Source: Yamagishiella unicocca
Taxonomy: Eukaryota > Chlorophyta > Chlorophyceae > Chlamydomonadales > Volvocaceae
Assembly: GCA_003116995.1 (NCBI GenBank)
Contig: BDSL01000007.1
Span: 806,001 to 870,000 of the forward strand
Direction: 5' to 3'
DNA: 64,000 nucleotides
Below are positions 9,534 through 34,300 of the stretch, one piece after another. Position 1 is the first letter of the stretch. The number at the start of each line of letters is the position of its first letter. The notes under the pieces are model-generated. The model did not search any database and was not told the origin of the DNA. It saw nothing but the letters and a program-made list of their open reading frames with translations. The translations under genes and the position numbers were made by a program.

Positions 9534-12500
9534 ATGGTGTTTGGGAGCAAGTCGTCCACGTTCCAGGTACGCATCAAATTGACCTTGCAGGAAGGTGGGC
9601 AGGCGCAATGCCGACCCAGGCCAGCAATTCCTACCAGATTGTTTGTGTTAAACAATTTACCATTTGTGCTTGCGGCGGCCGTGATTTTCTGGACGGGGCG
9701 CGAACAGGACCCTGATTTCAGGGCGGGTGAGGATGCCATATACGAAATCAAGCAAAATGGCAACACATATCAAGGACATGATATAGCGCGTGTAGTGGAA
9801 TGGTAAGCTGCAACACACTTCCACTTCCCCAACCTCACCGGCACCCGGGTTTCTGGCATATGCCCACGACACAAGAAAGTAGTTCATTACTGGGGACAAC
9901 CGGGAAACGGTCCGAAAACCCGTCAGTCGACTTCAGGTCTCTTACTACCTGCTTTAGTGTCAGCCTGCGTTGCGCGCCTCGTCGCCCAACCTGAACCAGC
10001 CATGTACACAGCCAGGCCCTGCACCTCCCCCCGCCTTTATGTCTTCCCGCTCCCCCTTCGCAACCCCCCGCCGCTCCTTCTGTCGCGCAGGCGTCGCCTG
10101 AAAGACCTTCCTTCCTTCCTGCGGGCGACGGACGGCAAGACCAACGTGCGCTTGTTTGAAGGTAAAACACAGCACTTGGACTGCCCCCCTGCCTCCGCCC
10201 CTCGACCTCTCCCAGCACAGGACCGCGCCATTCTGCCGGCTGCAGCCCCACCCTAATTCCTCCACAACCTTATCACAACGGCTCAACTTCTGTGGCTGTT
10301 GCCGTACCATCACCATCGACACCGCGCGCCGGCCTTCATCCTTTCCGTAGATGGCGTCCGTGCCGCTGACATCAACCAGGGCGCGCTGGGCGACTGCTGG
10401 CTGCTGTCGTCCCTGGCATGCCTGGCCACGCGGTCAGGAGCTGTGGAGAAGGTAGGGCGAGGGGAGACACTGCCCATGCGCGCGTACCAGTCAGTGGCAC
10501 GGTTGACATGGAAAGTCGTCCTAGCAAGCGACTGCCCGCCCGACAGCGCGATGCCGGTGGTGTTGGAACCTGGTTGATTCCGGCGGATCTGATCCGTGGC
10601 CTGGGGACTGTTTTGCCGTCGCGCTGCTGGGTGTAGCGCCCAGGTTCATCCAGTCAACATGATCGCAACACGATCACACAATATTCAATACCCAAAGACA
10701 GCTGCCGGTTTACCTGTTTGTCCCTGTGGAACCCTCGGTTTGTCTCTCCCTGTGGAACCCTCGGTTTGTCTCTCCCTGTGGAACCCTCGGTTTGTCTCTC
10801 CCTGTGGAACCCTCGGTTTGTCTGCTCCACGTATAACCAACTTCACCTACCCGCCACTGGGCCCCCCTCCTCCTGCCCACCGACGCAACCCATGCAGTTG
10901 TTCCTCACGCCTGAGTACAATGAGGCGGGCAGGTGGGCCCGGGGGTCGGGCAGAGGGCCTTTGCAGGCCTCTTAGCGGCCATGGGGCGCTTCATTTTGGT
11001 CGTTCCTGGCTACTGACGTCCTCCTTCCTCGCGCCAGGTACCAACTGCGGCTGTGGGACAAGCAGACGCATCAGTACAAGGAGATCACGATTGACGACAA
11101 GTGAGGCGGGAGGTTGGGATTAGGAGGAAAGGAAGCACCGGGGGACGTGTTCGCTGCAAAGGAAGGGGGGAAGACACCTGGACGCCTGCCCGGACCGCCC
11201 TGGCCAATTTGTCCCTGCGCATCGGCCACTGCAGCCACGCGGTTGAGCCATGGGCGCATTGCGCGTTGGTGAGATAAGGCGGGGCGCGGGGTGGCTTCGG
11301 AGCGCCAAGATGCGGGGATGCTGCCACGACATCCCTATTGCTGCGCCACGGCTCGGCAATGAGAAAACACGCCGCACTCTGCTAATCACTCTTCCCACGC
11401 GCACGCACTGCCCGCAGCATCCCGGTGTGGCGCCAGGGCGGCCAGCCCTGCTTCGCGCGACCTACGGGCAATGAGGTCTGGGTCCTGCTGCTGGTGAGGA
11501 GCGGGGCCTCTGGCCCGAGCGGGGCATCGGGCCCCAGCGGGCCGTACGCTTTCCTCTTACTTCGCTTTTTTCATTGCGGCCTGCGCGCGCGTTGTGCAGT
11601 AAGCCGGCATCCCCGAGGAGGCGCGCCGCCTGTGCACCGCTGCGGCTCCGCCTGCCCTTACACCGTTTGCTCCGCGCCTGCGTGCCTGCCTGGCGCCACA
11701 GGAGAAGGCCATGGCCAAGTACGTCGGCAACTACTTCTTCCTGGACGGCGGCATGGCGTCATGGGCGCTGGAGACGCTGACGGGGCACTACACGTGCGTC
11801 TTCCTGCTGGAGCGCAAGGTGGGCCCGTGGGTCGGGACTCGAGGTGATGTCGGATGTTTTAGGGGCATGGGGTCTCGAACTGAGGTTCTCTGACGCCCAA
11901 GAGATCTACAGCAAGATCCCGGCTCGCCCAGTCCGTTGCCCCGTTGCCCCGTCGTCGTGGGTTTGTGGGGAAGGCCGGTGATTAGGAAGTCGTGGCTGCG
12001 GTGCGCCGCACTGGCCTCCTCGCCGTCGGCGCTTCCCCTCCGCCTCGGCCGCAGCTCCTTACGGCTGCTCCTCCCGCCTGCCCTGTCCCGCCTCAGTTCG
12101 GCCCCAACCGCGACGCCGGCCCCGACCAGCAAAACTGGCGCTGGCTGCGCGCTGAGCTGGCCACCAAGCCCGCGGACCGGGTGGTGGCCTTCGGAGGCCT
12201 CGCCTCGCCCATCAACCGCAGCACCCTGTACACGTACGACGAGTCGGACAGCTCCAAGTTCTACGCACACGAGGAGGTGTTCATGGTGGGTGCGGGAGGT
12301 TATGAAAGAAGTCCCGAAGTCCGCGAATCCACGGCCCCCGGTGCGGGGAGGGGGGGCTATAAAAGAAGTCCGCGAATCCACGGCCCCCGGTGCGGGGGGA
12401 GGGGTATGAAAGAAATCAGCAAATCCACGGCCCCCGGTGCGGGGGGGGAGCGGCAGGGCAGCTGGGACCTTGCCGGGTGCCTGGGCAGGGGGCGGGGGGC

Positions 12501-15500
12501 CGAAGCCCCTCCGGCTTGGAGGCGCTGCAGCACCGCCGCCGGGAGGACTTGCTGTACGATGTTGTTGATATAACGCGCACTGCGCGGTATGGGTTCCGGA
12601 GCATCGGGGTCGGATGGTCGGGGCCGGAGCCTCTCGTCCTCCGCCGCAGCATGTCGCTGCCGCAACCCCCCCCTTCCTATGTCGAATTCTCCAGCATGCA
12701 TCTCGAAACGTCTGTCCTGAACGGTTTTTCTCGCATCCGCAGGCCTTCCTCGCAAACCCCTTCTTATTTCCATTATCCGGGTATTCTCGTCACGCCCCCT
12801 TTCCTATCTTTCCTAGTTGCCTTCCTAGTACACGGGCTTTCCTCAAACCTTCCTATGCTCCCTATGTCATGTTACCGGGTCATCTCGCCACACACACACC
12901 CTCCCAGGCCGTCGTGTACCACCTGGCTATCGGCAACCTGGTGGCCGCCGCCACGGTGGGCACGGAGGACGACAAGGTGCGGGCGGGGCGGGGCGGGGCG
13001 CAGCAGCGGGAAATCTAAGGCCGGCGCCCGGCGGGCAGGTTCCGGCAGCCAGCTCGCAATGTTTGTGCATTGCCTAGCCCGTCCCAGTCACAGGCCTAGG
13101 ACTGGCGTCGTCGCTGTGCCGCGCGCCCGCACCCATTCGTGGTCGCTGCGCCCGCAGGAGGTGGACGGTGTCGTGCGCGCACACGCTTACACCGTGATGG
13201 CGGCGCGACCGGTCAACAGCAACGGCCGCGGGCAGCTGATGCTGCTGCAGGTGCGTCGGGCGGCCGGCAGCTGTCGCGAGCTGTTGCGAGCTGCTGCGAG
13301 GAGGGAGGGGCGTCACGCGTGTTGCTGGGAGGGACTAAGCGCGTGTAAATACGCGCTGGGGTGTGTTTTCTGGTGCGCCTGGCAAAGCAGGGTTCGACGC
13401 GGGTACGCGGTACGCGGGTACGCGGTGCTGTCTTGCACCCTATGCCGGCACCTCACCTTGCCGCTGCTGGCCACGGCGGCACCGGCAGGTGCGGAACCCA
13501 CATGGTTCCGGCGGCATCGAGTGGACCGGCGACTGGAGCGACCGGAGCACCCTGTGGGCCAAGCACCCGGAGGTAAGGCGGCTGAGCGCACTTTGGTAGT
13601 AGCCCCCGCCGTCGTGACCCTCTCCCCTCGTGGCGCGTCATCCTCATCGGGATGCTTCGCGTACTTGCTTGCGTGTCCTTCTGTCCCGAATTCCGTTTGC
13701 GCGACCCACGGGTCTGCTCCCGGCCCCGCAGGTTGCCGAGGCTGTGGGCTACAAAGCCCCCGCCTCTGTGACCACCAGCGGGCCCGCCACTGACGGGTAC
13801 TTCTGGATGGAGTGGCGCGACTTCGTGCTGCACTTCAAGGAGGTCACCTTCTGCTGCGCGTGAGCTGGCGCGGGTTGGGTCGGGTTGGGTCGGGTTGGAT
13901 TGGGTTTCGGAGCGAGGGCGCTATGAAGACGGGGCGAGGCGGCGTCAGAAGGGCGGCGCCTGCTCACCCAATCAACCCGGCGCCGGGCCACAGCGTCACC
14001 GCGTCCGAGGAGGTTGCTGTTGGGGCTGGACATACGCCTGACGGCAATGCCCCGCCCTGCTTGAAACCACGTCCTAAACCCAAATGCCGCTTCCTGGTTG
14101 CCGCTTCCAATGTACAACGCAGCAACGGCTTTGACTACGTGGAGGATCAGACGGCGGGCTGGGTGGAGGTTTTCAACGTGAGGAGGGTTGGGGGAGAGTG
14201 ATTTCAACGTGAGGAGGGTTGGGGGAGAGTGATTTCAATTGTCTTCGACATGGACGGTGCGGGATGGCAAGGGGAGACGGCAGGCAGGCGATAAGGCACC
14301 AGCACAGCCCGGGGACGGACCTTGTCTTGTGTATTTCCACGTTTGAGACCCGCGACGTCCTGTGGTCACCTTGACCACCCACCGTACCCACTTGTGCAAA
14401 CACAGGACCCCTCTTTCCCCCACGACTACCGCTCCCTGGGCGACTACAAATTCATCTTCAACGGCAAACCGACGACGGGCAACCAATTGGACGAGATTGT
14501 CAAATGGTGGGTTGCCTGGGGTCGATGACCGCCCTGGGAGAGGGGTGATGGCCACATGCGAGGCGGCAAGCATCCATTCCGCCAGCCTGACATCGGCGTC
14601 TCGTGCCACCCCCTCTATTGCTCATGTTCCCCTCCCCTCTCTGTCCCTCCCGCACCACCCACAGGTTGCGCCTGAAGGAGATTGCGGCGCCGGAGCAGTT
14701 CCGCCGTGGCGTCCGCGGTCTCAAGCTCTTCGCCGGCAGCGGCACCCACCCGGACGACATCGACGGCGGCAGCACCGGCCTCATGGTGGCAGCCGCCTGC
14801 CTGGCCAACAAGCCGGGGGCCATAGAGGAGGTGCGCACAGCAGCCAGCGCCACCCGCGCGCCGCCGCCGCTGCTGCTGCCACCGTTGCTGCTGCTGCCGC
14901 GGCCGCTGCTGCTGCCGCTGCTGCCGCTGCTGCCGCTGCTGATGCTGCTGATGCTGATCTGGCGTGGCATAGCATTCCCCAGGACCCACGGTGAAGCCTC
15001 CCACGGGGTTCCCCCTCCCCCCTCCCTCCTGCCCCGCAGCTGTTCGTGAGCGGCAAGGAGTACCGGCCCGACGGCGCCTACCAGGTCCGCCTGTACGAGC
15101 CCAAGACTGGCACCGCCTCCATCTCCCCATTTGACGACTGGTGCGTCGGGTGCCCCGGCAGGAGAGGGGTGCAAGGGGCGAGGGAGGGGGGTGCAAGGTT
15201 GCATGTGAAGCTTCCTCAGCCTCCTTCCAACGCGCATGCATCTCGTTCAAAATGGTCTGTCCAACGTCTGTCCAAAATGGTTTTCCTTTCGTACACGGGC
15301 TTTCCTTGCCACCTCCTCCCAACGTGCAACCCCACCACCCTTCTCCGCTGTCGGGTCCTCCGCCGCCACACGGTAGCAGCGAAGCGTTTCGTGGCTGTAG
15401 GGTTGCGTCGGCGGATCACGCGTGCGAATATTCTCGTGTTGCCGGCAAAGGTCGAGCGAGCTGCAAATCGCTTCTCTAGTTGGCTTTGGCTGCGCCAAGA

Positions 15501-18500
15501 CCACTGGCCACCCGCCCGACCCGACCCGACCCGACCCGACCCGACCCGACCCGTTCTTGCGCCCCACGTACCCCCCTGTCCGCTTGAATCCACCCACCCA
15601 GTATTCCCTGCTACAACGGCAATCCCATCACCAAGACCAAGATCCTGGGTTTCGAAGTGTGGGTGCTGCTGCTGGAAAAGGCCGTGGCACGTCTGGTGGT
15701 AAGTACCATACATGTAAACGGAAATATCTTGGGCCGCCACATTTGGACGCCGTCTGGTTAACGGCAGGTCTCTGAGCACGGCAGGCCACCGGAGTACGGC
15801 AGGCCGCCTGAGTATGGCAGGCCACCTGCGCTGCTGACTCGTTCATAGCCAGAGACTATCCCCCCCGCTATGCTCCCCCCATGTCCAGTCATCGGGAGGA
15901 GGTCTTGAAGGATGGCACCCAAGGCTGCCGCGCCACCATGTTCCTCTTTGAACAGGCCCCTGAGGAGTGCCGCCCCGACCCGCTCCGGGCCCCCGCCCGC
16001 CCCCGCCCCCGCCCCCGCCCCGCGCACTGCCGCAGGAGTCGTACAGCAAGGTGTCCATGTGGGGCGTGCAGGTCTGCTGGGCGCTGGCCTGCCTGACCGG
16101 CCATTACACCTGCATGCTCATGTGGGAGGATGGAAAGAAGGTGCGGCGCAGCCGGGCGGGAACTGCCGCCATCCAGCTGCACGGTGTTGTGTCCGCGGCG
16201 CGGCGCCTGTGTGCAGTGCGCGTGGATGCGGTGTGGGCGGGCGGCCAGATGCCCTCGCCTGCGCGCGCTAGAGCAGTAGTAGTATGTGACTTTTGTGTTA
16301 CCTCATGGCAGTTCATGAGGGCGCCAAAAACACTCTCCCCAGCATTCTTTCCCTCCTCCGCCTGTGCCACACGCACACGGGTTTCCTCTCCCTCCCCACA
16401 CCAAGTGCTCCAGCATGCATCTCGAAACGTGTCTGTCCTAAACGGTGTTTGGTTTCGTTCATGGGTTTCCTCTCCCTCGCCAACCCACACACAGAAATGG
16501 CGGCGGCTGGAGCTGCTGTACGTGGAGAAGCAGCCCGCGCAGTACCGGGCGGAGTTCGCGGGCGACGACCAGTCGCTGGTGGGCAGTGACGACGTGTTCA
16601 AGGTGCGGAGGAGGGGGTGGTTGGGGGCCGGGGCGCGGACCCGTCTGGGGCTTGCCTCGTGACTGTGATGGCCCGAAACTGCCCGGCTCAGCGGCACCAC
16701 CCGTCAGCGACGCAGCTCCCGACCTCAGACCTCCCGCCTTCATTCCATGCGTTCCGCACCTCCCTGCTCCCTCCGCCCGCCTCTGCCCGCCTCCGCCCGC
16801 CTCTGCCCGCCTCGGCCCCCTCCGCCCGCCTCCAGACGCTTTCGACGCAGCTGCTGCTGGGCTGCCTGCTGGCGGCTGAGACCGACAAGCAGGACGTGAA
16901 CACCGACGTGAGCGGTCTGGCCAAAGCCAGGAACTACAGCGTCATGGATGCCAGGTGAGTTGGGGCGGGGGCGGGCAGTTGTGGAGGAAGAGGGAGACCG
17001 GTGGTAGTTGGAAGCACGGGGGGGTTAGTGCCTGGTAGTGCCTGGTAGTGCCTGGTCCTCGATTGCCTCTGCGGCCTTAAAGGCTGCCAATTAGTACCTC
17101 TCTGCCAGTATGCCGTACGTTGCCGTACAATGACAGGCAGCCGCCGCCATGGGTGTTGCTGACGCGCGGGGATTTCCCGATGCCTCGCGCAGGACCGTAT
17201 CCGCTGGCGGCCGGACCTTGCAGATGATCAAGGTACGGAGCACCGCGTGGACCGGCACCGGGCCTTGTGGTTCCTGAAGCCCTCCCTGCGTGTGGTTCGC
17301 AACCCACCGGGGCTGTTGCCATGTGCACCGACTTGGCGCCACTCAGACACGTGGCAACGCTGCCACGCAGCACTGTCACGCTCGCGTTGCTTCGCACGGA
17401 CGGCATGTGAAAGCGCGCACCGTAGTCGCGGCTTTGGCACGTCAACTGGCGCGCACGTGCCCTGATACCACCACCTCTACGACGATCCTGAGACGATCCT
17501 GAGACGATCCTGAGACGATCCTGAGACGATCCTGAGACGATCCTGAGACGATCCTGAGACGATCCTGAGACGATCCTGAGACGATCCTGAGACGATCCTG
17601 AGACGATCCTGAGACGATCCTGAGACGATCCTGAGACGATCCTGAGACGATCCTGAGACGATCCTGAGACGATCCTGAGACGATCCTGAGACGATCCTGA
17701 GACGATCCTGAGACGATCCTGAGACGATCCTGAGACGATCCTGACAGTGCTGACACGTGCACCTCTCCCTCCCCCCTGCCTGCACCTCTCCCTCCCCCCT
17801 GCCTGCACCCTCCCGCGGCCCTGCTTCCACGACTGTATGCTCCCGGCCTGGTGATTGACGCCGTCCCCGCTGGCCCCGTCCCCCTCCACGGCGGTTGCTG
17901 TTGCTGCGCAGCTACGAGACCCCTCCCGTCAGGTGCGTCCAGTCCTCGGTCTCCGGTTCCCCCCAGTCATTGCGGCGCTCCTACCACAAATACGCGTGAC
18001 CTCCAAAACAGATACTTGGCCGCGTGCCTCTCCCCGCTGTCGATCCATGTATCCGCGGCTGCGTTTGCTCTCTTCCTTTCAGTTTGCTCTCTTGGGAGAG
18101 TTTGCTCTCTTCCTTTCAGTTTGCTCTCTTTCAGTTTGCTCTCTTTCAGTTTGCTCTCTTGGGAGAGTTTGCTCTCTTCCTTTCAGTTGATGATTAGGAG
18201 TACCCTTCACCCCTCGGCTTGTCCAACCCTGCCACTGTCATGTCGCCTTTTTTGAAACCGCAGAACGAATGGAAGGGCGACTGGAGCGATAGCAGCAACC
18301 TGTGGGACCAGAACCCCGCGGTGAGCGCTGGGAGCGGGACAACCCACCCACCCACCCAGCCAGCCAACCACCCTTCAAGCTACGATACCACTGGCCGCTT
18401 ATCAGTGTGATCCTGTTGTCGTCAGCACCGACCCTGGTCTGGGCTTTTCACCGCCCCCCTGAGTTTGCGCAGGAAGGATGCATACGCGGCAATACTCGAT

Positions 18501-19795
18501 AGTTCGCCCATATACATAGTCTCCACCACAACCACCGCAACCACCGCAACCACCGCAACCACCACAACCACCACAACCACCACAACGCCCCCGCAACGCA
18601 GGTGGCGCAAGCTCTGGAGTTCCGTCGCGAGGCGGCGCTTGACGGCGCCGATGACGACGGCGCCCAGTCCCGGCCCGCCCGCCGCGACGGGTCGTTCTGG
18701 ATGACCTACCAGGACTTCCTGCTGTACTTCAAATTAGTCACGATGTGCGGAAACAGGTCCGGCTGCGCGCGAGGAGATGGCTGTCGGGCGTTTTGCGGAG
18801 ATGATTGTGGGGCGTTTCGGATGTCTAAAACGTTGCGCGACGCACTAAAACGATAGTGCGTTGAGGCTGCTTCGGAGACATTACGCGGGAAGCGTGAAAA
18901 CATGCGACCTGGCGTCTGGGGGCCTCCTTCCATAAGGCAAGGTAGAGCACAAACCCTGCTGGCACCACACGCATTCAGACGGCAAGCACACACGCACATA
19001 CCCACCCACCGGCTTCTCCGGTGTTGAGTTACGCCGTTCCTCGCGACGCCCGTCCTCCGCAGCCTGCGCAACAACAACAAGCCGTGGATCGCCAAGAAGG
19101 AGGACCTGGACCAGGCAGCGCGGCGGCTGGCGGAGGCCCGGCGACAGCAGAAGCTGCGGGAGGAGCAGGTGCGTTAAGAGCAGCCGTCAGGAGCCGGTCA
19201 TCAATGGGAAGACGGGATAGGATGAGCTGGGAAGAGCACCACCGGAACGACACCGGAGCACCCGGCCTGGCTGACGGGCCGCTCCACGCTCCGGTCCACA
19301 GCGCAATCCCACCCCGCCGCTGAGCACCCGTAACGGTAAAGTAACGGTAAAGTAACGTTCAAGTAACGGTAAAGTAACGCCCGCTGCCGCGTGACGGGAC
19401 CCCAAAACCGTGAAACCCCAGACCCTAAAACCCTAAAAACCTGAAATCCTAAAACCCTAAAACCCCAGGAAGCCCTGGAGGACTCTCAGCACCAGGAGCT
19501 ACGCAAGCGGGCGGTGGAGCGAGCCAGCGGACCTAGTGGCCCGGCGGCCGGTGTGGTCTTCGCGCAGGCGGCTATGGTGGCAGCTGCAAATGCACCCAAA
19601 CGGGAACCGCCGCCGCCACCGCCGCCGCCGCCTGCCTCTGCTGCCGCAGCTGCTGGCGCGGGCGCCGCCGCCGCCGGCGCGGCAGGTGCAGGGGCGGCGG
19701 CTGCAGGCGGGGCCGCGGAGGCCGCTGACCCGTCGTCGAAGCCGCCAGTCGTGGTGGTGGACTACAAGGGCTGCAAGGCGTGCAGCATCATGTAA
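9534..19795 (+). CDS. Tandem calpain: active plus degenerate protease domain, C-terminal CAAX box
   Basis: Calpain-family (C2) cysteine protease, 27 exons, 903 residues. Exons: 9534-9566, 9708-9802, 10091-10161, 10351-10451, 10898-10932, 11038-11100, 11418-11493, 11702-11818, 12097-12285, 12908-12976, 13158-13250, 13489-13572, 13732-13859, 14123-14177, 14406-14506, 14665-14830, 15040-15140, 15602-15698, 16036-16140, 16495-16602, 16836-16954, 17193-17232, 17912-17932, 18264-18320, 18602-18756, 19063-19168, 19469-19795. All phases match. Domain 1 has QGALGDCWLL (Cys82), VRAHAYTV (His292) and VRNPHG (Asn317), a complete triad. Domain 2 aligns along its length but has Thr474, Arg661 and Asp685 at those sites and lacks the oxyanion Gln, so it should be inactive. 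A charged coiled-coil-like region and an Ala/Pro-rich linker lead to CKACSIM, a prenylation box with a nearby palmitoylable Cys. The short first exon and the weak donor at 18757 (GTCCGG) are the least certain parts. Confidence 0.9.
10721..10824. repeat. 26-bp minisatellite, four copies, calpain intron 4
   Basis: The unit tccctgtggaaccctcggtt followed by tgtctc starts at 10721, 10747, 10773 and 10799 with no visible mismatch. Confidence 0.9.
12300..12447. repeat. About 50-bp repeat, three copies, calpain intron 9
   Basis: Three units share (t)atgaaagaa, (g)cgaatccacggcccc and cggtgcgggg. Unit lengths differ slightly through poly-G changes. Confidence 0.85.
12691..12758 (+). repeat. Copy 3 of short interspersed intron element
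   Basis: ccagcatgcatctcgaaacg, then tctgtcctgaacggttttt, then a diverged tail ending ccttcctcgcaaacc. In calpain intron 9, sense to the gene. Confidence 0.75.
14171..14232. repeat. 31-bp perfect duplication containing a 5' splice site
   Basis: The unit starts tttcaacgtgaggagggttg and recurs immediately, so the exon end and GTGAGG donor of calpain exon 14 exist twice. Using the second donor would add 31 bases, shift the frame and meet a stop. Confidence 0.9.
14872..14960. repeat. CTG/CCG trinucleotide-rich tract, calpain intron 16
   Basis: Interrupted runs of ctgctgctg and ccgctgctg. They generate long false open frames on both strands. Confidence 0.85.
15232..15313 (+). repeat. Copy 4 of short interspersed intron element
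   Basis: cgcgcatgcatctcg, then a partly duplicated gtctgtccaa block, then tcctttcgtacacgggc and tttccttgccacc. In calpain intron 17, sense to the gene. Confidence 0.75.
15515..15552. repeat. CCGAC pentanucleotide array, calpain intron 17
   Basis: About seven perfect cccga units, about 50 bases upstream of the exon 18 acceptor. Confidence 0.85.
16409..16481 (+). repeat. Copy 5 of short interspersed intron element
   Basis: ccagcatgcatctcgaaacg, then gtctgtcctaaacggtg, then a diverged ttcgttcatgggtttcc tail. In calpain intron 19, sense, ending 13 bases before the acceptor at 16494. Confidence 0.75.
17481..17744. repeat. 11-bp minisatellite, 24 perfect copies, calpain intron 22
   Basis: The unit gacgatcctga repeats 24 times over 264 bases with no mismatch that I can see. 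Eleven is not a multiple of three, yet no frame of the array contains a stop, so it makes long false open frames. Confidence 0.97.
18063..18187. repeat. tttgctctct...ttcag repeat cluster, calpain intron 23
   Basis: Repeated tttgctctcttcctttcag and tttgctctcttgggagag blocks. Several units look like decoy 3' splice sites (polypyrimidine plus CAG) ahead of the one used at 18263. Confidence 0.8.
18524..18593. repeat. CAACCACCG 9-bp array against the exon 25 acceptor
   Basis: About seven caaccaccg/caaccacca units end a few bases before the acceptor at 18601. Confidence 0.85.
19331..19379. repeat. gtaacggtaaa decamer-like repeat, calpain intron 26
   Basis: Five short units of gtaacggtaaa or close variants, just upstream of the telomere-like block. 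Confidence 0.75.
19400..19468. repeat. Interstitial telomere-like repeat CCCTAAAA abutting a 3' splice site
   Basis: Three exact ccctaaaa units (19423, 19431, 19455) and several one- or two-base variants run up to the CAG acceptor of calpain exon 27. CCCTAAAA is the Chlamydomonas-type telomere unit read from the C-rich strand. Confidence 0.85.
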
Positions 19796-23379: not shown

Positions 23380-26300
23380 TCATGGTCCGGCGCCGTGTCC
23401 CAGTCCACTGAGGCTCTTCATGCCGCTACGAATGCGCTTCCGAATGCCCCGCAGCACACCCTGAACCGGCGACAGCCGCGCTGTGTCATCCACGATCCGC
23501 GACAACTGCTGGGAGGACCTGCCGCCGCCGCCGCCGCCACTGCCGCCGGCGTCCGGCCCATGAGCCTCGCCGTACAGCTGGCCCACAGCGTCTCGCAGCG
23601 CGAGGGTTTCGGAACTAAGGATGCCGCCGCCGCCGCCGCCGCCCATCGTAGATCCTCGTCGGATTAGGTGGCCGATCCACGACGACCCCGTGCGGCGCCC
23701 GTGCTCCAGCGGCTGGGAGAGCAGCTGGGAGGTGGCGGCGGGCGGGCCTTCCGCCGCGCCTGCGGCGGCCACTCCGGGCCGGTATGCGTACGACGCGCCT
23801 GCGGCGTTGCCGTCGACGCCGCCGTCGGCACGGCCGTCGCTGGGTGTCGCTTGCGTCTGCGTCCTGTTGTAGTACTGGAGGCTGGCCTGCTGGGCAGCGC
23901 TGAAGCCAGTTGCCGATGACGCCTGCGGCGGCAGCGGTGCGCAGATGTGGGCCAAGATGGCGGAGCTGTTCTCCCGCAGCGGCGCTGAAGACGCGGGGGA
24001 CGCCCACTGCGACGCGCTGCCGCTCGTTACTCCGCCGCCGCCGCCGCCATTGTTGTTGTTGCTGACTGCCGCTGCCGCGGCGGCGGTGCTGGCTAGGAGC
24101 GCAGGCAGTGTGGGCCGAGGGCCCTCCCCCGCCTCGCCCGCCCAGCCCAGCCGACCGCTGCTGCCCCCGCCCATGATGCTGACAGCCGCGCCGGCGGCGG
24201 CTGGCGCCGCGGTTCCGGAGCCAGTAGCCGCCTTCATCACGCCAGCGGTAGTGGATCGGCCCACTGATCCGGAGCCTAGCATCGGGGCCAGAGTCTGAGG
24301 GGACACGACGAGGCGCGAACCGCCGCTGTCATCCCCGCCAATCCTGCCCCCGCCCCTGCTGCCGGCGTCGCCGCCAGACCCATGGGTCGGACCGCCGCTG
24401 CCCGCGCTGGGGTCGGGGCCACTGCCCACTGAGCTGGTGCCCGTTGTCCCCCGCGCCACCGACATGCCGCCGCCACTGAGATTTTGGATGCCGTACGAGG
24501 CGTGGCTGCCCGTCACCGGCGCGCCGCCGCCGAAGGCGGGCGGCAGCATGCAGCCCAGGGTCACGTCAGCAAAGGAGACCAGGGACGGGTTGCTGGAGCT
24601 GTGGCGGCTGCCGCCGCTGGCGGCTGCGCCGCCGGCGCCGGCGCCATCTGCCGCGGCTGTCGCGGCGGCGCCGACTGCCGGCAGCTGCGACAGCGCGCTA
24701 CTGGACGACGTGACCGTATGCGAGTGCAGGAGGGTGTGGAGCGTCTTATCAGGTGCGGAAGAGCCCTCGGGCCCCAAGGAACCTCCGCTGGCTCCGGAAC
24801 CCAGCCGGCCCGCGCTGCCGAGTTGCGACCCGTCCGCCGTGCTGCGGGCGGCGACGCCGCCGTTTGCCAACGAACCCGAAACGCCCGCGGCTGAGGCCGC
24901 CAGGTGCTGCACCTCACGCGAGTTTCGGTAGGGCTGACGCTCCCGCGGCGACTGCCGCTCCGACGAGCTGCCGCTGTCCAGGCGCGCCCCGCCCCGCCCC
25001 GCTCCCGCCCGGCCGCCCCAGGGCCGGCCCAACAGCCCACCGACAGCGGCACCGGGCGCCGCCGCCGCCGAGGAGCCGATACTGCTGCTTCTGGCCGTGC
25101 TGGCTGCGCCCGCCGCGGCCGACCGGTCCCCTTCGCTGCCGGCGCCCACGATGGCGGTCCCGACACCAGACATGTAGCCGCCGACTTGCGCCACGTCATC
25201 GGTGGCGCAGGTGACCAACAGGGCGCTGGCCGTGTTGCCGGTGCTGTCATGGACCGCCAAGGGGTCCTCCTCACCGATGCGAATGAGCCCCGTGTCGTGC
25301 AGGTGGCGGGCGAGGTCCAGGGAGGCGCGATTCAGCATCATGGCCGCACCGCTGCCGCGGCTGCTGGTCCCAAAGCCGGTGCTCGATGCCACAGCGCCCG
25401 TGGTGGCGGCGATTAGGCTTCCGCCCGTCTCGGCGGTGTTGTACGACGTCACGCCGCTCGCCGCAACCGCCGTAACGGCACTGACTACGGAGCCGCCGGC
25501 GCTGCCGGATCCATGGCTGGAGAAGCGGCTGGAGGCGCTGGCGCCGATGCGGCCGATGTGCAGGGAGTGGCCGGAGGATTTGACCCGGGTCGACGGCCCG
25601 AAGGGCTGCCCGACGCTGCGATCGGGGCTCGCGGATGATGGCCGGATCGGCGCTGACCCGTTGACTGCTCTGGCCGACGCCGAGTGCTGCAGCTGCTGCT
25701 GAGAACGGAAGGCGGACAGCGCGGCCCAGTGGCGGTTGGCCTCGTGCCTGCCGTGCTTGACGTCCCACGTGGCGGCGGATCCCGACGGCGAGCACGACCG
25801 GGATGAGAGCTGATCGATTGACGACGACGGATAGCCTCCGGCTACGCCGCCCGTGGTCAGGCCGCTCACGCCCCCAGCGAATCCCCCATTCCCAGGGCCG
25901 AAATTGCCGGCTGGGGATGCCGACGAGTACTGCCTCGCTGTCAATGGTGGTTTCGGAGACATGAAGTCGTACTCGGAGCGTACGGTGGGGCCCATAAGGA
26001 TCCGGCCGTGGCTGATCTGCCCGGTGAGGGCCGCCTGGAAGGACTCCAGTGGCACGGCGGAGCCCTGTGGGGAGGCGCTAGCAGCGGCCGCCAGAATCTC
26101 GGACTGGTAGACCTGAGGTGGCGACAGCAGGACAGCAGGCGGGCAGGACAGCAGGCGGGCAAAAATGCGGCTGGAGGATCGGGTTGGTGGTGACAGGCGC
26201 AGGTGGTGGTGGTGCTGTACGGGCAGGACCCGCGCGAGGAGCGCGGTCCAGGCGAGGTGCCAAGCACGAGGCGAGCGGCGCGAGGGCCAACCGCAAAGTC

Positions 26301-29300
26301 ACCTCGACACCTGACACCCAGCAGCAAGAACCCAACCACCCACCCCTCCTGGCCGCACCTGCCGCCCGTCCGCCAATATAATGACCTGGCGGGTCGTCTC
26401 CTCCTCAACCGCTTGCAACCGCTCCGCCCGCGCGCCGCCAGGGGGCAGAACCCCGCTGCCGCCGCCATCGCCCCGACCCAAGCCGCTGCGTGGTCCTACA
26501 TCTGCACCCGCCTCATCATCCTCCAGATTAGCGCTCAGGCTCCTGGTGTAACTTCCGTCGCGCGGCAGCGGCCATTGATGACGCCCAACTGGCGGTGGGG
26601 AGGTAACGGTGAGTTCGGGGAAGGAGTCAAAGGCCTCGGCTGCAGCTGCCGCCGCCGCCGCCGCGCCCGCCGCCGCGCCCGCCGCCGCGATTGCGCCGGG
26701 AGCGCGCCTGCCGCCTGGGGCACTGGCTGCCTGCGTGGCGGCTGCCAGCGCAGCAGCGCCCTGGGTTGACCATGCCGATTCCGCCATGCCTGAAGAGTGT
26801 CGCTGGACTCCTTGCAGTGTACGCAGCTCGCGCCCGGGTGAAGCTGCGCCGGACGGCAGCGGCAGCGTGCCCGTGTTCGCGGTGGAGTTGAGGCGGGGGA
26901 TGTGGCTGCTGGGGTTGAGCAGGAAGGGCGACGAGGCCGAGGACAGCAGTCGGTCGTAGGCGTCCGCATCGAAGATGATGGACGAGAGCGCAGATTGCTC
27001 GTTGGCCGCATTGCTGGCGGCGGCGTTGGCGGCGACGTTAGCCGACAAGCGTGCGCGGCTCGCCGCATCGGTCGGGGCAAGAATCCTAATCGGCACGGAC
27101 GCCACGTCCGGCGGCGCGGAGCGATGGGCCGGACCCGCACGCCCCTGGTCCTCGTCCTTTGGCCAGAAGCCTCCCGGCGGGCCGGAGAAGGCGGGCTCTC
27201 GCTGTGTTGGAGTGTCGTACAGCGCGTTGCGAAATGCCGTGACCCGCGCGGCGTCCGCCGGGTGGGGGAACGGGCCCCTGCCGTCCCGAGCGTGAGGCTG
27301 GTACAAGGCATGCGGCTTGATGGTGGGGCCGTACGACCGGGCGTGCGACAGCGCCGAAACCGGGGGCGGCGGCGGCAGGTCCGTCCGCTCCGACGATACT
27401 CGCCGCATCTGCGACACCTCCTCCTGCCGCAGCAGCAGCATCGCTCCAGGGTCCTTGAGGCGAGGCCACTGCAGTACCTGGACGCCGGGCACGGAACCAG
27501 GGGTCATGCCGCCGTCCTCGGACGAGGCAGGCGCGGCTGCTGAGGCGGCTGGGATGCGCCGCAAGTAGCGTGGGTCCAGGGAGGTCGTACGCTGAGGAAG
27601 CAGCATGCTGGGGGGCAGTGAGTCAAGGGAAACGCGCTTGGCCACCGCAGGCGGCAGCTGCGGCGCCGGCAGCGGGCGGCAGGTGGGCTCATCGGACAGG
27701 CCTATGTCGTCAGCTGCTGCGGGAGCGATCTGTTCGCGCTGGCTCGGTGCTGGTGGAGCGCTTGCTGCGTGCTGCAGGAGTTCGCCGTCGGCGCCGGCGG
27801 CGGCGCCGGAGGTGGTACCGCTATTGGAGCGGTTGTATCTGGACAGGCCCAGGGCGCTGGGCCGGGGACTTGACACCCGGGATAGCGTGCGCGCCACTGA
27901 GTCGCTTGCCGCGGCCGTGCTCACGCTGCCACTGCCCTGGCACGAGCCGTCCATGCTACTGAAGGTGCTGATCAGGGCCTGCGCCAGCAGCAGCGGCGGC
28001 ATGCGCCGCACAGCGCTGGCAGAGGCGTCGGGTCCGAACAGCGCCTGCAGTTGCTCTCCATCAAAGGCCATGGCGGCGGCGGCGGCCACCGCAGCCGCTC
28101 TGCGCCCGGAGGTTGAGCCAGTCGCAACGACGTCAGCATCATCATTCACTGGGACAGGGACCCCAGGCAGCTGCCGCTGCATGTGGCGGGCTGATGCCAC
28201 CACCTCACGCGGCTGCTGCTGACGGCAGGCGCGCGCCAGAGCGTACGACAGCGAGCCCGCCGCCAGCCATAAACCGCCGTACATAACCGCCAGCGCGGAC
28301 GGCGCCGCCGACGGCGCCAGGTGCCGATGCAGCAGCGCAGCGCCGACGGAGGCGGCGGCTGACTGGATGCCGTACGACCACGGCGGCAGGTTGCTCGCCA
28401 TCAGGTGGATCAGGAGCATTGCCGCCGCCGCCGCCACCGCGACGCGACAAGGGGCCGCTGCCTCTCCGCCAGGCGGCGCCAGAAGCAGCAGCAGCACCGC
28501 CCGAGTCAGGCTCGCAAGCCAGCTAGCGGCGCAGTTCACCATCCACGTGTAGCGCGGCCTGCAGGTGAACGAGCACGGCAGGGTGGGTAGAGAGGTCAAG
28601 CATGAACCGCAAGCCACTGCTGACGGCTCTGGCCCTTGAGGGTAAGACTGGTGGATGTCATCGCGACCACTGGCGTTCGTTTCAAGTGTCAAAATGACCG
28701 CAAAAGGTACGACGCGTGGGACGAGCGTGCGGGCAAGCCCCGGCAGCGCAGCGTAGCTTTACTCCGCCCCTTCCCGCCGGCGCCGCTGGCAGCCTGGCTG
28801 CCTTACCGTTGAGGACGTGGCCAAAAGATCCAGATCACGTTCAGGACCAGCACCGTGGATCCCCAAGTCGTCACCAACAGAGCCCCCAAGCACCGCATCT
28901 CCTGCAGCTCCGGAGCGATGGAGCTCCTGGGCACCGCCACCACCGCCGCTGGCCCCAACGGGTCATCTTCACGCCCCCCCGGAGCTGCACCGGCTGACAC
29001 CTCCAGGCCATGCATCATACGTGCGTGGGGGAGATGCCAGTGCGCGAACCACCCCGCGGAGCCGCAAGCGCAGGACGAGGCGTCCAGGAAGTTGTACGAC
29101 AGCAATGCCACGTCGGCCAGCCGCGCCGCCCCCACGTGCCAGCGCTCCGCCCAAAGGAGCCCATGCCACCCCTGCCATTCCGGCCTCTGTTGCTGCTCCG
29201 GGTGCTGCTGCCGCGGTTGTTGGCGACGCTGGAGATCTGTGAGCCAGGGAAGGTCGCGCTGCGGCGCTTGCTGCGGCACAGGCGACAACACGCAGGCGCC

Positions 29301-30716: not shown

Positions 30717-31345
30717 CTTAGATCAGGACGCTCCTTATTGTTTACAAATGCCTCCAGTAGCGCAAGGGACTCGCCTGGCAAGCGTAGCTGACAGGACGCC
30801 AGGGCTGCCCATCCTGGTCGTCTGCCGCCGCCCCCTCGCCTGACCTTCAGGTGAAACGACACCTCAAATCATGCCGTCGTTTAAGCCAGCGCGTCAATTC
30901 TCGCGACCGCGTCAAATGCGGACAGGTTCCGGTTTGCACGTGTCCTGGCTCACGCATCAACACTCCTCACAAAGTCCATATTATTTCCTTTAGCATTTGG
31001 ATGGTTTCTAGAGCGAAACGAGCTCCTTGAGCAGAATAGGTTCCAGGTAAAACCGTACACTTTCCTACTGCGAATTACTACCATCGGAGAAGGCTTCTAC
31101 GAGCCCGTGCATACTGACATAATCCCCAAAATCGCATGATACGTAGATAATTGCTTTAGTGATAGTGGCAGTCCCAATCTCCCAAAGTCCAATACCTGAA
31201 CAAGATGCAAACAATATCACGTGGGCGTAGTAATAGGCTTATCAATTTTATATCATGTTGTAAGGCAATTCATTGAGGGTGATCTTGGGGAGCACCTGCT
31301 CATTTACAACTTGCCGTGCTGGGCAAGGCATCGTTCTCCGGACTC
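30717..31345. promoter_or_regulatory. Divergent promoter region of membrane protein and BRAP genes
   Basis: 629 bases, more AT-rich than the flanking exons, between opposed start codons. No convincing coding frame. Confidence 0.5.
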
Positions 31346-34300
31346 ATGTATACGCTGCACGTTGTCGCCTCCGAGCGGCGTCTCTCTCAGGTTACGCTGA
31401 CAGGCGCAGGGCGCAGCGGTTCCCTCGGCGGGGCGGCAGCGTCGCGCCCCAATCTGTTGGGTGACGGCGATTCAGTCAGCGACGATAGCGAGGGCGAGCT
31501 CTTGGGTCTAGACTTGGATAATGACAGCCAGGCAATCGAATTCACGGCAGGAAACCCGCGCGTCGAGCACATCACCGGCGTCGTGCACCTGTACCGGCCC
31601 ACACCAGGCCGCCTGCCCCAGACGACGCACCCGCTCGGCGCCGCAGCCTCCGCAGCTTCGTTACCGGCCGCTGCACCGAGCGGTGGAAGCCTCGCCACCG
31701 CCGCTTTGTCCGTGGTAAGGGACGTCCCTCCGCCAGCCAAGGGCGCTGCGAGCTGGGCCTCCCTCTTCTCCCCGCCAGCGGCAACCCAGCTGCCGGTGCA
31801 GGCCCTCAGCGGCCCTGCGGCCCCAGGAGCCGAACGCTGCGATGAGCTGTGCTGCCTGGCGCTTCCCTCCGACATGACCATCGCGGACTTCTGCACGTTT
31901 CTGGGCGCCCACTTGCTGCGGCTACGGCGCATGCGGGTCCTGCGCCGCCAGGTGGGCCCTACGGGACACGTGGCAGCCACGCAAGCCTCCACCTCCGCCA
32001 CCGCCGCCGCTGCTGCAGCCGCAGCCGCTGCTGCTGCCACCGTCGCTGTACTCGCACGGCCCGCCAGCGGCGCCGGCGCCGGCCATCTCCAGCGGGAGGG
32101 CAAGGGGCAAGGGCGCCGGCAGATGGCAACCGAGCGCGACCAGCAGGCCGAGCGGGCCGTTCCGCAGGATGAGGTTTCGGAGCTGGAGCGGCGACAGCAA
32201 TCTGGGCAGGGGACAGGGACGGGGCCGGGTGCGGAAGGAGCGGCGAGGTCGGTGCGGGCTGGTAGCAGCGGCGGGGGCGACACAGCGACCCGTGGGTCTG
32301 GCACCGGCGTCGGGCAGCAGCAGCTGGCGGGGCAGGGTACGATTCACGAGGCCACCACCGCCACCACCACGGCCACCGGTCGACCGTCGGGCTCTGCCCC
32401 CCGCCCGTCCTGCCAGCGCGTCGTGTGTATGGTCGTGATGCGCATGGAGAGCCCCGAGGCAGCCGACGAGCTGTACGGCGACCTGAACGGCAAGCCGTTC
32501 AGCTCCTTGGAGCCTGACGTTGTCTGCCGACTCGTACATGTACGGCACGTAGAGGTTACCAGCGGCCACGGCAAGCACGCGGCGGCTGCGATCGACGATG
32601 TTTCTGCCGCTGCTGGCGCCGCCGCCGCCGCTGGGCCGGGGCCACTGGCTGCGGCGACTGCCGCTGCGGTCATGGACCCTGCCCTCCATACCTCACCACA
32701 GCAGCAGCAGCTGCTGCCGCCGCCGGGCCAGACGGAGCTTCCCACGTGCCCCGTGTGCCTGGAGCGGTTGGACGAGCACGTGAGCGGCATCGTCACGACC
32801 GTCTGCAACCACATGTTCCACTCGGAGTGCCTGCAGAAGTGGGCGGACACCACCTGCCCGGTCTGCCGTTACTGCGTCCAGGGCGCAGCAAACGCATCGC
32901 GCTGCGGCCTGTGCTCCACTGCAGTCGACCTGTGGATCTGCCTCATCTGCGGCCACGTGGGCTGCGGCCGCTACCGGGCAGGTGGGCTGGCCGGGAGACG
33001 GGGAGGAGGCGGGAGCTGTCCCTTGCCAAATATGGCACTGGCATGACATCACGGGGCGTTGCAAGCTTGCGGTGTAGCGGCGGCATGGGGGTCAATGTGG
33101 GGTAGTTTTGCGGGCGGCAGTGCGCGACCTGATGGCATGGCTTGAGGCGATAGGTTGCAAGTTGCAGGGGGCTGCATTGGTGGGTTGGCGGCAATGAGGC
33201 GTGGATGCTGGGCAGGAAGGGCGTTACACAGCCGGCCCGGGGCTCCCTCACGCACATGACCCACATGACCCACGTGACCTACACGACCCACATGACCCAC
33301 ATCGCCGCGAAGGTCACGCCGCCGACCACTGGCGCACCAGCGGCCACTGCTACGCGCTCGAGCTGGAGACGCAGCGCGTGTGGGATTACGTGGGCGATAA
33401 CTACGTCCACAGGCTCATCCAGTCCAAGACGGACGGAAAGTTGGTGGAGCTGGCGGCGCCGGCCACGGCCGTCGCATCCCCCCACGACGCTGCACGCGGC
33501 GGAGCCGCCACCGGCCATCGCCACAACCACCACCAACACGCCGATGGCGCGTCCTGCGGCGCGGCGTCCGGCGGCGTATGTGGTGGGCGGGACGGGGGGG
33601 GCGGCGGTCGCGGAGGCGGCGGCGGTCACCGGGCGGGGCCGGGTGGCGGGGGCGGGTACGGCGCTGACGGCGGCGCCGGCAGCAGTGGTGCACACGACGG
33701 TGACGGCGGTCCCGGTTGGAGCACCGCTGACGAGCAGCTCAAGGTACGTGTGCAGGGCTGCGGCAACTGCCTCCACCGCTGCCTCGACTGTTGCCACCGC
33801 TGGCGCAATTGTTGCCGCCGCCGCCGCCGCGGCCGCCGCCGCCGCCGCTGGCAGTCGCGCGTGCAGAAGCGCCAAGGCGTTCTCCATTTCGCCGCACGCT
33901 CGTGCCTTGTATGGCTCAGCATCCCACGGCCCTTGCCGCGCGTGCCTGCCATCAGCCGTACGCGTACGTAAGGCGTCCGCGCATTCGTCCCGCCACCGCA
34001 GGAGGCCCTTATGGCCAGCAAGCTAGACGCGATCGCCGTCGAGTACAACCACCTCCTAGCCAGCCAACTAGACAGCCAGCGGCAGTACTACGAGGGCCTT
34101 ATGGCGCAGGTGAGAGTCGGCTGGGTGGGTACGTTCGACTTGGGTGAGAGTGCTCCAGGGAGGGCGTCGGGGTTGGTGAGGTCATTATTTTATAACACAG
34201 CCATCAGCGCTTGGTGCCCCGCGGGGTGAGGGGTTATCGGAGGAGCAACAGCCGGCGCCGCGCCGCTTGCCCTGACGCCTGAACCATGCCACCCTCACAT

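What the first reader, a model, noticed from the sequence alone, without database searches (positions are those of the whole stretch)
9534..19795. Tandem calpain with one active and one triad-less protease domain, plus a prenylation box
Seen: domain 1 keeps Cys82, His292 and Asn317. Domain 2 aligns over its length, including the IPCYNG, TGHYTC and EWKGDWSD blocks, but has Thr474, Arg661 and Asp685 instead and has lost the QGA preceding the Cys. The C-terminus is CKACSIM, a CAAX box. Known: calpains need the triad; pseudoproteases often regulate an active partner; CAAX proteins are prenylated. Inference: a membrane-anchored protease whose second domain acts in cis as a regulator or substrate platform. 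I know of no described calpain combining these three features.
Basis: partly seen in the sequence, partly recalled or inferred. Interest (0 to 1): 0.85.

Follow-up and report, generated by a model that had tools for sequence, protein, structure and literature searches.

The report
Calpain with a dead twin domain
A green-alga gene encodes a calpain-type protease followed by an internal copy of itself whose active site has been erased, ending in a lipid-attachment signal, and relatives in other volvocine algae keep this layout, so the dead copy probably has a job of its own.

Summary
A 27-exon, all GT-AG model (9534-19795, +) encodes 903 aa with two calpain CysPc domains (PF00648 E 2e-58 and 3.8e-39), triad Cys82/His292/Asn317 in the first, Thr474/Arg661/Asp685 in the second, and CKACSIM at the end. 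The architecture is not private: 7 of 139 database proteins scanned hold two CysPc domains, all end-to-end kin of this gene, six from volvocine algae and one unnamed. The second domain is as conserved as the first (71.8% vs 72.3%), has lost 8 of 14 conserved positions near the active site but 1 of 31 others, and keeps five Ca2+-ligand acids. CaaX-Met is present in 7 of 8. Tree and shared introns point to one intragenic duplication. The genome has a farnesyltransferase beta gene. Best reading: a lipid-anchored calpain with an in-cis pseudocalpain that probably regulates or docks the active domain; the regulation is inferred, not shown. Precedents exist for multi-CysPc, dead, and CaaX-ended calpains singly. 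Contrary cases: one relative lacks CaaX, one annotation stops after domain 1.

The parts
9534..19795 (+). whole coding span, 27 exons, 903 aa
   Evidence: spliced model, all introns GT-AG, in frame; end-to-end alignment with relatives
9708..13854 (+). domain 1, CysPc (aa 12-383), exons 2-13
   Evidence: PF00648 E 2e-58; calpain protease cores in PDB to E 2.7e-30
10395..10397 (+). domain 1 catalytic Cys82 (QGALGDCWLL)
   Evidence: C in 7 of 7 sequences with that exon, P0006's model lacking it
13182..13184 (+). domain 1 catalytic His292
   Evidence: H in 8 of 8
13495..13497 (+). domain 1 catalytic Asn317; two residues on (13501-13503) stands His instead of the usual Trp
   Evidence: N and H in 8 of 8; His there in 13 of 58 other calpains
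14406..18754 (+). domain 2, pseudo-CysPc (aa 404-759), exons 15-25
   Evidence: PF00648 E 3.8e-39; D2 rows one clade 100/99
14774..14776 (+). domain 2, Cys site: Thr474 (or a gap, by alignment)
   Evidence: 4 T, 2 S, 1 N, 1 G in 8 sequences, never C; gap
16929..16931 (+). domain 2, His site: Arg661
   Evidence: R in 8 of 8, also in P0111; His in the basal relative P0092
17918..17920 (+). domain 2, Asn site: Asp685, in a 21-nt micro-exon (17912-17932)
   Evidence: D in 7 of 7 sequences with that exon, also in P0111 and P0092
14756..18688 (+). domain 2 counterparts of calpain Ca2+-ligand acids: Asp468, Glu544, Glu691, Asp698, Asp737
   Evidence: all five kept in 7 of 7 rows; ligand numbering of calpain-1 is recalled, mapped by the alignment
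18755..19528 (+). post-domain helix region (exon 26 and start of exon 27)
   Evidence: conserved in relatives; long helix 767-810 in the P0001 model
19529..19771 (+). variable Pro/Ala/Gly-rich linker
19772..19792 (+). CKACSIM: CaaX box Cys900 (19781-19783) and upstream Cys897
   Evidence: CaaX-Met in 7 of 8, upstream Cys in 7 of 7 of those

Best explanation
A single gene that arose by duplication of a calpain domain inside one gene in the volvocine lineage. Domain 1 stays a likely Ca2+-dependent cysteine protease; domain 2 kept its fold and Ca2+-ligand acids but had its active site erased, and now works in cis as a pseudoprotease, most likely by binding domain 1 (or its substrates) and so gating or directing cleavage. 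The C-terminal CaaX box is farnesylated, with the upstream Cys a possible palmitoylation site, so the enzyme acts at a membrane. Shown here: gene structure, two domains, residues, conservation, duplication, CaaX conservation, a farnesyltransferase beta gene in the genome. Inferred: activity of domain 1, Ca2+ binding, lipidation, regulation in cis.
For: Domain 2 evolves as slowly as domain 1: mean pairwise identity 71.8% vs 72.3% among the window and P0001-P0005, six of the eight sequences. Of 45 columns conserved in at least 85% of 58 other calpains, domain 1 keeps 42 and domain 2 keeps 31; nine are wholly lost in domain 2, of which eight (Q, C, W, L; H, A; N, G) lie within six residues of a triad position, 8 of 14 such columns against 1 of 31 elsewhere (Fisher p 1e-4, or 0.003 without the triad itself). 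Substitutions are fixed (R 8 of 8, D 7 of 7). Five Ca2+-ligand positions kept 7 of 7. D1 and D2 rows group together, 100/99, with the single-CysPc calpain P0112 next, 98/97 (midpoint root); 6 introns sit at the same column and phase in both halves, 0 of 20000 random placements do as well. CaaX-Met in 7 of 8; farnesyltransferase beta at C42 (E 1e-36), alpha-type loci C72 and C5 over the cut-off.
Against: No activity, lipidation, location or interaction data. NPH instead of NPW in domain 1 (8 of 8); P0004 and P0007 have GNC instead of GDC, and P0007 also lost the Trp after the Cys. The second Ca2+ site lacks the Glu333 counterpart in both domains, though only 7 of 58 other calpains have Glu there. 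P0007 has no CaaX. P0110 ends after domain 1. The fold model has pTM 0.56, and no coordinates or domain-domain contacts were available. Five of the 14 conserved columns near the triad are intact in domain 2 and one is partly kept. The ICMT match is weak support, since that search also rings over the cut-off in 4 of 14 control genomes.
Confidence: 0.5

Rival explanations
1. The whole protein is non-proteolytic: domain 1 is a calpain in sequence only, and the tandem serves as a membrane-bound structural or scaffold protein, as proposed for many trypanosomatid calpains and for CAPN6.
For: NPH in 8 of 8, GNC in P0004 and P0007, Cys-flanking Trp lost in P0007. Trypanosomatid calpains are described as possibly devoid of activity with structural roles (PMC7912814, passages and section 5); CAPN6 as microtubule stabiliser (PMC3563603, passage).
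Against: Cys and the Gln are intact in domain 1 of 7 of 7 sequences with that exon, His and Asn in 8 of 8, and 42 of 45 calpain-wide conserved columns are kept in 7 of 7 rows; 13 of 58 other triad-bearing calpains have NPH too.
Confidence: 0.2
2. Domain 2 is not a regulator of domain 1 but an independent module, e.g. a Ca2+ sensor or docking surface for a partner at the membrane.
For: Ca2+-ligand acids kept 7 of 7. A domain-2-like half occurs in P0092 (Chlamydomonas incerta) joined to domains with thioredoxin-type Pfam accessions (names recalled) in place of the CaaX tail, so the module can sit in other company.
Against: P0092 begins in mid-domain, so its gene model may be cut and it may still have a first domain; in the 6 of 6 database proteins with two complete domains the order is active-dead.
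Confidence: 0.22
3. Annotation or splice artefact: two neighbouring calpain genes, or an alternative splice that restores a triad.
For: P0110 of Volvox reticuliferus is annotated as domain 1 only (430 aa, 3 cluster members), ending in an out-of-frame tail at the start of domain 2.
Against: Six database proteins keep both domains complete in one frame, one of them, P0005, on a 3502-base contig; residues at the His and Asn sites of domain 2 are fixed across species, so a missing exon is unlikely to hold a triad.
Confidence: 0.03
4. The CaaX box is decorative: the end is conserved for another reason and is not prenylated.
For: P0007 does without it. No lipidation data.
Against: The end is conserved behind a linker of very variable length and sequence; Met at X fits farnesyltransferase (recalled); the enzyme is encoded.
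Confidence: 0.08

Closest known systems
Trypanosomatid multi-CysPc calpain-like proteins (groups 4-5; T. cruzi H49/calpains)
   Same: more than one CysPc in one protein: XP_809993 has three, XP_806305 two (PMC3214072, passages); 'repeats of their CysPc domains' (PMC7912814, section 5)
   Different: far-off lineage, 68-aa repeats or other domains; no active-plus-dead pair with CaaX described in the passages that I read
Catalytically dead calpains (CAPN6 and others)
   Same: CysPc with replaced triad residues occurs in many eukaryotes (PMC3563603, Figure 1 legend); CAPN6 has a microtubule role (same paper, passage); that CAPN6 lacks the catalytic Cys is recalled
   Different: the dead domain stands alone there; here it is in cis with an intact one
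Classical calpain-1/-2/-3 protease core
   Different: no CBSW/C2L and no penta-EF-hand match; Trp298 is His; second Ca2+ site lacks one acid
Membrane-anchored calpains (DEK1 and types 1-4)
   Same: calpain brought to a membrane
   Different: those have a membrane region in the chain, and none were found in chlorophyte algae (PMC10762896, section 7); here a CaaX lipid signal is expected to do it
Single-CysPc algal and protist calpains with CaaX-like ends (P0112, P0120, P0121, P0125)
   Same: intact CysPc and Cys-aliphatic-aliphatic-X end: CAAC, CILM, CTIL, CAIL; P0112 is the nearest row to D1+D2 in the tree
   Different: one CysPc only; hydrophobic Cys-rich N-terminus that the tandem protein lacks
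FAP42 / androglobin of the ciliary central apparatus
   Same: calpain-like domain; FAP42 orthologues in unicellular green algae (PMC8175508, passages)
   Different: FAP42 is adenylate/guanylate kinase-like, about 270 kDa; not this gene

Membership tests
Calpain superfamily (C2, CysPc) | CysPc domain | tested here: met
   PF00648 over cut-off in both halves
Calpain superfamily (C2, CysPc) | Cys-His-Asn triad, domain 1 | tested here: met
Calpain superfamily (C2, CysPc) | Cys-His-Asn triad, domain 2 | tested here: not met
   T/R/D in the window; R 8 of 8 and D 7 of 7 in relatives, no Cys in 8 of 8
Calpain superfamily (C2, CysPc) | Ca2+-dependent proteolysis | not testable with these tools
   needs purified protein
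Classical calpains | CBSW (C2L, PF01067) and penta-EF-hand after CysPc | tested here: not met
   no such Pfam match in either half at E up to 10
Pseudoproteases | protease fold kept, catalytic residues lost, purifying selection | tested here: met
   (domain 2); fold by sequence profile, selection judged from protein identity only, no codon test
Pseudoproteases | regulatory or binding role | not testable with these tools
   inference only
CaaX prenylated proteins | C-terminal Cys-aliphatic-aliphatic-X | tested here: met
   CSIM (Ser at a1); CaaX-Met in 7 of 8 incl. the window
CaaX prenylated proteins | prenyltransferase in the genome | tested here: met
CaaX prenylated proteins | attached prenyl group | not testable with these tools
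   needs mass spectrometry
DEK1-type membrane-anchored calpains | N-terminal multi-span membrane region and CBSW | tested here: not met
   only 11 residues before domain 1 in the model, no CBSW match

The most novel reading that the evidence does not exclude
A lipid-anchored calpain that carries its own Ca2+-binding inhibitor or activator: domain 2, a duplicated calpain core with its active site replaced by a fixed Arg-Asp pair, senses Ca2+ and clamps or releases domain 1 at the membrane, doing within one chain what calpastatin, EF-hand subunits and C2-like domains do for animal calpains.
Probability: 0.25. Interest if true: 0.78.

Novelty: new variant of a known kind. Interest (0 to 1): 0.55.

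Why it matters
It gives a natural experiment in calpain regulation: an active core and an erased copy in one chain, conserved from Chlamydomonas to Volvox, a group in which species can be transformed (recalled). It would be a lipid-anchored calpain in chlorophytes, in which membrane-anchored calpains are reported as not found (PMC10762896, section 7), and the CaaX-like ends of single-CysPc relatives suggest that lipid anchoring of algal and protist calpains has been overlooked.

Tried and rejected
Second tandem calpain in the same genome: none found; the domain 2 search matches this gene and, weakly, the single-CysPc genes on C51, exon by exon and so not exhaustive. Domain-domain contacts and the Arg661-Asp685 distance: no coordinates were available and pTM is 0.56, so not argued. 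The 'pdb_via' rows cover mainly residues 2-392, domain 1, so they say little of domain 2's fold. A Chlamydomonas reinhardtii relative: none named among the hits of three searches, which admit only certain lengths and at most about 8000 candidates, so absence is not shown. N-myristoylation (MGK or MGKA starts in P0001, P0002, P0006, P0110): the window starts MVFG, dropped. My first version of the active-site test counted nine hand-picked positions (8 of 9 lost against 1 of 36); it left out conserved neighbours that are kept, so I replaced it by all 14 conserved columns within six residues of a triad position (8 of 14 against 1 of 31). One search gave no frames. Alignment A2 was not used further. 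For the tree I named 27 outside calpains, of which 20 had passed the coverage filter and were used; P0006 domain 1 was dropped from both trees for its missing exons. Literature, all ten searches: for six phrases on prenylated, farnesylated, CAAX or lipid-anchored calpain or protease, returned 0 papers; the library holds open-licence papers only. Papers seen: PMC3563603 outline, passages and part 1 of 3 of section 4; PMC10762896 passages and section 7; PMC7912814 passages and section 5; PMC3214072, PMC9380684, PMC13413365 and PMC8175508 passages; all others search listing only.
Full report
What is there. Splicing 27 exons from 9534 to 19795 on the + strand, all introns with GT-AG ends, gives an uninterrupted 903-residue protein. 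Pfam puts Peptidase_C2 (calpain CysPc) on residues 10-383 at E 2e-58 and on the second half, starting at residue 404, at E 3.8e-39; the only other match up to E 10 is below its cut-off (PF11846, E 0.2), so no CBSW/C2L domain and no EF hands. After the second domain come a helix-forming stretch, a Pro/Ala/Gly-rich linker and the end CKACSIM.

It is one conserved gene. The protein search returned 91 proteins, the region search on domain 2 returned 25 and the profile search 107, 139 distinct in all. Seven of the 139 hold two CysPc domains, and all seven are end-to-end relatives of this gene: Pleodorina starrii P0001, Volvox africanus P0002, Astrephomene gubernaculifera P0003, Chlamydomonas incerta P0004, an unnamed contig P0005, Volvox carteri P0006 (a model that lacks several exons) and Chlamydomonas schloesseri P0007. 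Two further hits are partial relatives: Edaphochlamys debaryana P0111, which spans the domain 1-domain 2 junction, and Volvox reticuliferus P0110, whose annotated protein holds an intact domain 1 and then runs out of frame early in domain 2. I cannot tell whether that is a real loss or an assembly or annotation error. The searches admit only proteins of 0.55 to 1.75 times the query length and score about 8000 candidates, so 'volvocine only' is what was found, not a proof.

Domain 2 is an erased copy under constraint. Arg stands at the His site in 8 of 8, Asp at the Asn site in 7 of 7, and the Cys site holds Thr, Ser, Asn or Gly, or a gap in another alignment. P0111 agrees for Arg and Asp. Of the 45 calpain-wide columns, 9 are wholly lost in domain 2, five partly lost and 31 intact. 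Of the 14 columns within six residues of a triad position, 8 are lost (Gln, Cys, Trp, Leu; His, Ala; Asn, Gly), one partly and five kept; of the other 31, one is lost (Gly175). Fisher p is 1e-4, and 0.003 if the three triad columns are left out. Yet domain 2 changes no faster than domain 1, 71.8% against 72.3% mean pairwise identity in six of the eight sequences, P0006 (lost exons) and P0007 left out; against P0007 domain 2 is a little less alike than domain 1 in most comparisons (window: 59% vs 63%). The positions of five Ca2+-ligand acids (Asp106, Glu185, Glu302, Asp309, Asp331 of calpain-1; numbering recalled) are kept in 7 of 7; some of these may be structural.

Origin. In the tree of 38 rows, domain 1 (8 rows) and domain 2 (10 rows, P0092 among them) are each on one side of a branch, 100/99, and group together, 100/99, with the single-CysPc calpain P0112 of Astrephomene next, 98/97; the root is at the midpoint. 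An earlier tree of 50 rows without P0112 agrees, 97/90. Six introns lie at the same alignment column and phase in both halves, of 11 in domain 1 and 10 in domain 2; none of 20000 random placements reached six. So an intron-bearing domain was most likely duplicated within the gene before these genera split. P0092 of C. incerta branches at the base of domain 2, has His but Asp at the Asn site, and continues into domains with thioredoxin-type Pfam accessions (names recalled), which hints that the Asn was lost before the His. Its placement rests on a partial domain with a long branch.

The lipid signal. CaaX with Met is present in the window and in P0001-P0006, 7 of 8, with a second Cys three residues upstream in all seven; P0007 lacks it. 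The linker before it varies in length and sequence. The same genome has two prenyltransferase beta loci: C42 matches farnesyltransferase beta (E 1e-36) and C38 Rab geranylgeranyltransferase beta (E 2.3e-34), plus two alpha-type loci over the cut-off. An ICMT match exists too, but that search also rings in 6 of 14 control genomes, over the cut-off in 4. CSIM-type boxes are farnesyltransferase substrates (recalled). Among the 129 other proteins, four single-CysPc calpains end in CaaX-like boxes, against 0.6 expected by shuffling their tails; 22 of 5000 shuffles reach four (the pattern was written after I had seen the ends). The two single-CysPc paralogues on contig C51 have Cys-rich ends, GCCGC-stop (L012) and ACCGCI-stop (L009). 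Lipid anchoring may therefore be older than the tandem.

How it most likely works. A farnesylated, possibly also palmitoylated, calpain held at a membrane by a flexible tail, in which the erased copy binds the active one or its substrates and, if it binds Ca2+, helps to gate it. The anatomy, its conservation and its origin are shown; activity, lipidation and gating are inferred.

What is known. Proteins with two or three CysPc domains are described in trypanosomatids (PMC3214072, passages; PMC7912814, section 5), calpains with partly or wholly replaced triads are mapped across eukaryotes (PMC3563603, section 4 part 1), and chlorophytes are said to lack membrane-anchored calpains (PMC10762896, section 7). 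The main text of the 41-architecture survey (PMC3563603) has no 'CysPc-CysPc' (0 occurrences) and no 'two CysPc'; its supplementary tables were not seen. I found no description of this gene or of a prenylated calpain, in a library of open-licence papers only. So: a new variant of a known kind, present in databases as hypothetical or 'calpain catalytic domain-containing' proteins.

Noticed in passing
L009 (C51:450000-459900) and L012 (C51:479701-489600): Two single-CysPc calpain genes about 26 kb apart on opposite strands, with QGQLGDCW and RNPW motifs, hydrophobic Cys-rich N-terminal segments and Cys-rich ends (ACCGCI-stop and GCCGC-stop): possible membrane-anchored calpains in a chlorophyte.
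   Followed up: partly
P0112, P0120, P0121, P0125: Single-CysPc calpains of Astrephomene and of three unnamed sources end in CAAC, CILM, CTIL, CAIL, more than shuffled tails give (pattern set after the fact).
   Followed up: partly
P0092 (Chlamydomonas incerta HXX76_012419): Domain-2-like half with His kept and Asn changed to Asp, followed by domains with thioredoxin-type Pfam accessions; gene model seems cut at its start.
   Followed up: partly
P0110 (Volvox reticuliferus Vretimale_11331): Annotated protein holds domain 1 and ends out of frame at the start of domain 2; real loss or sequence error unknown.
   Followed up: partly
window 17481-17744: 24 perfect copies of an 11-base unit in intron 22, just before the 21-nt micro-exon that carries the Asp685 codon.
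   Followed up: no
window 19399-19465: About 8 imperfect copies of ACCCTAAA, resembling a plant/algal telomere repeat (recalled), in the last intron.
   Followed up: no
window 31283-33046 (+): Open frame matching BRAP2 with RING and zf-UBP domains.
   Followed up: no
window 23380-28758 (-): Two abutting long open frames on the minus strand (972 and 819 aa) without a Pfam match at E up to 0.01.
   Followed up: no
G000 C42 and C38: Only two prenyltransferase beta loci seen, farnesyl- and Rab geranylgeranyl-type; no geranylgeranyltransferase-I beta locus in this exon-wise, capped search.
   Followed up: partly
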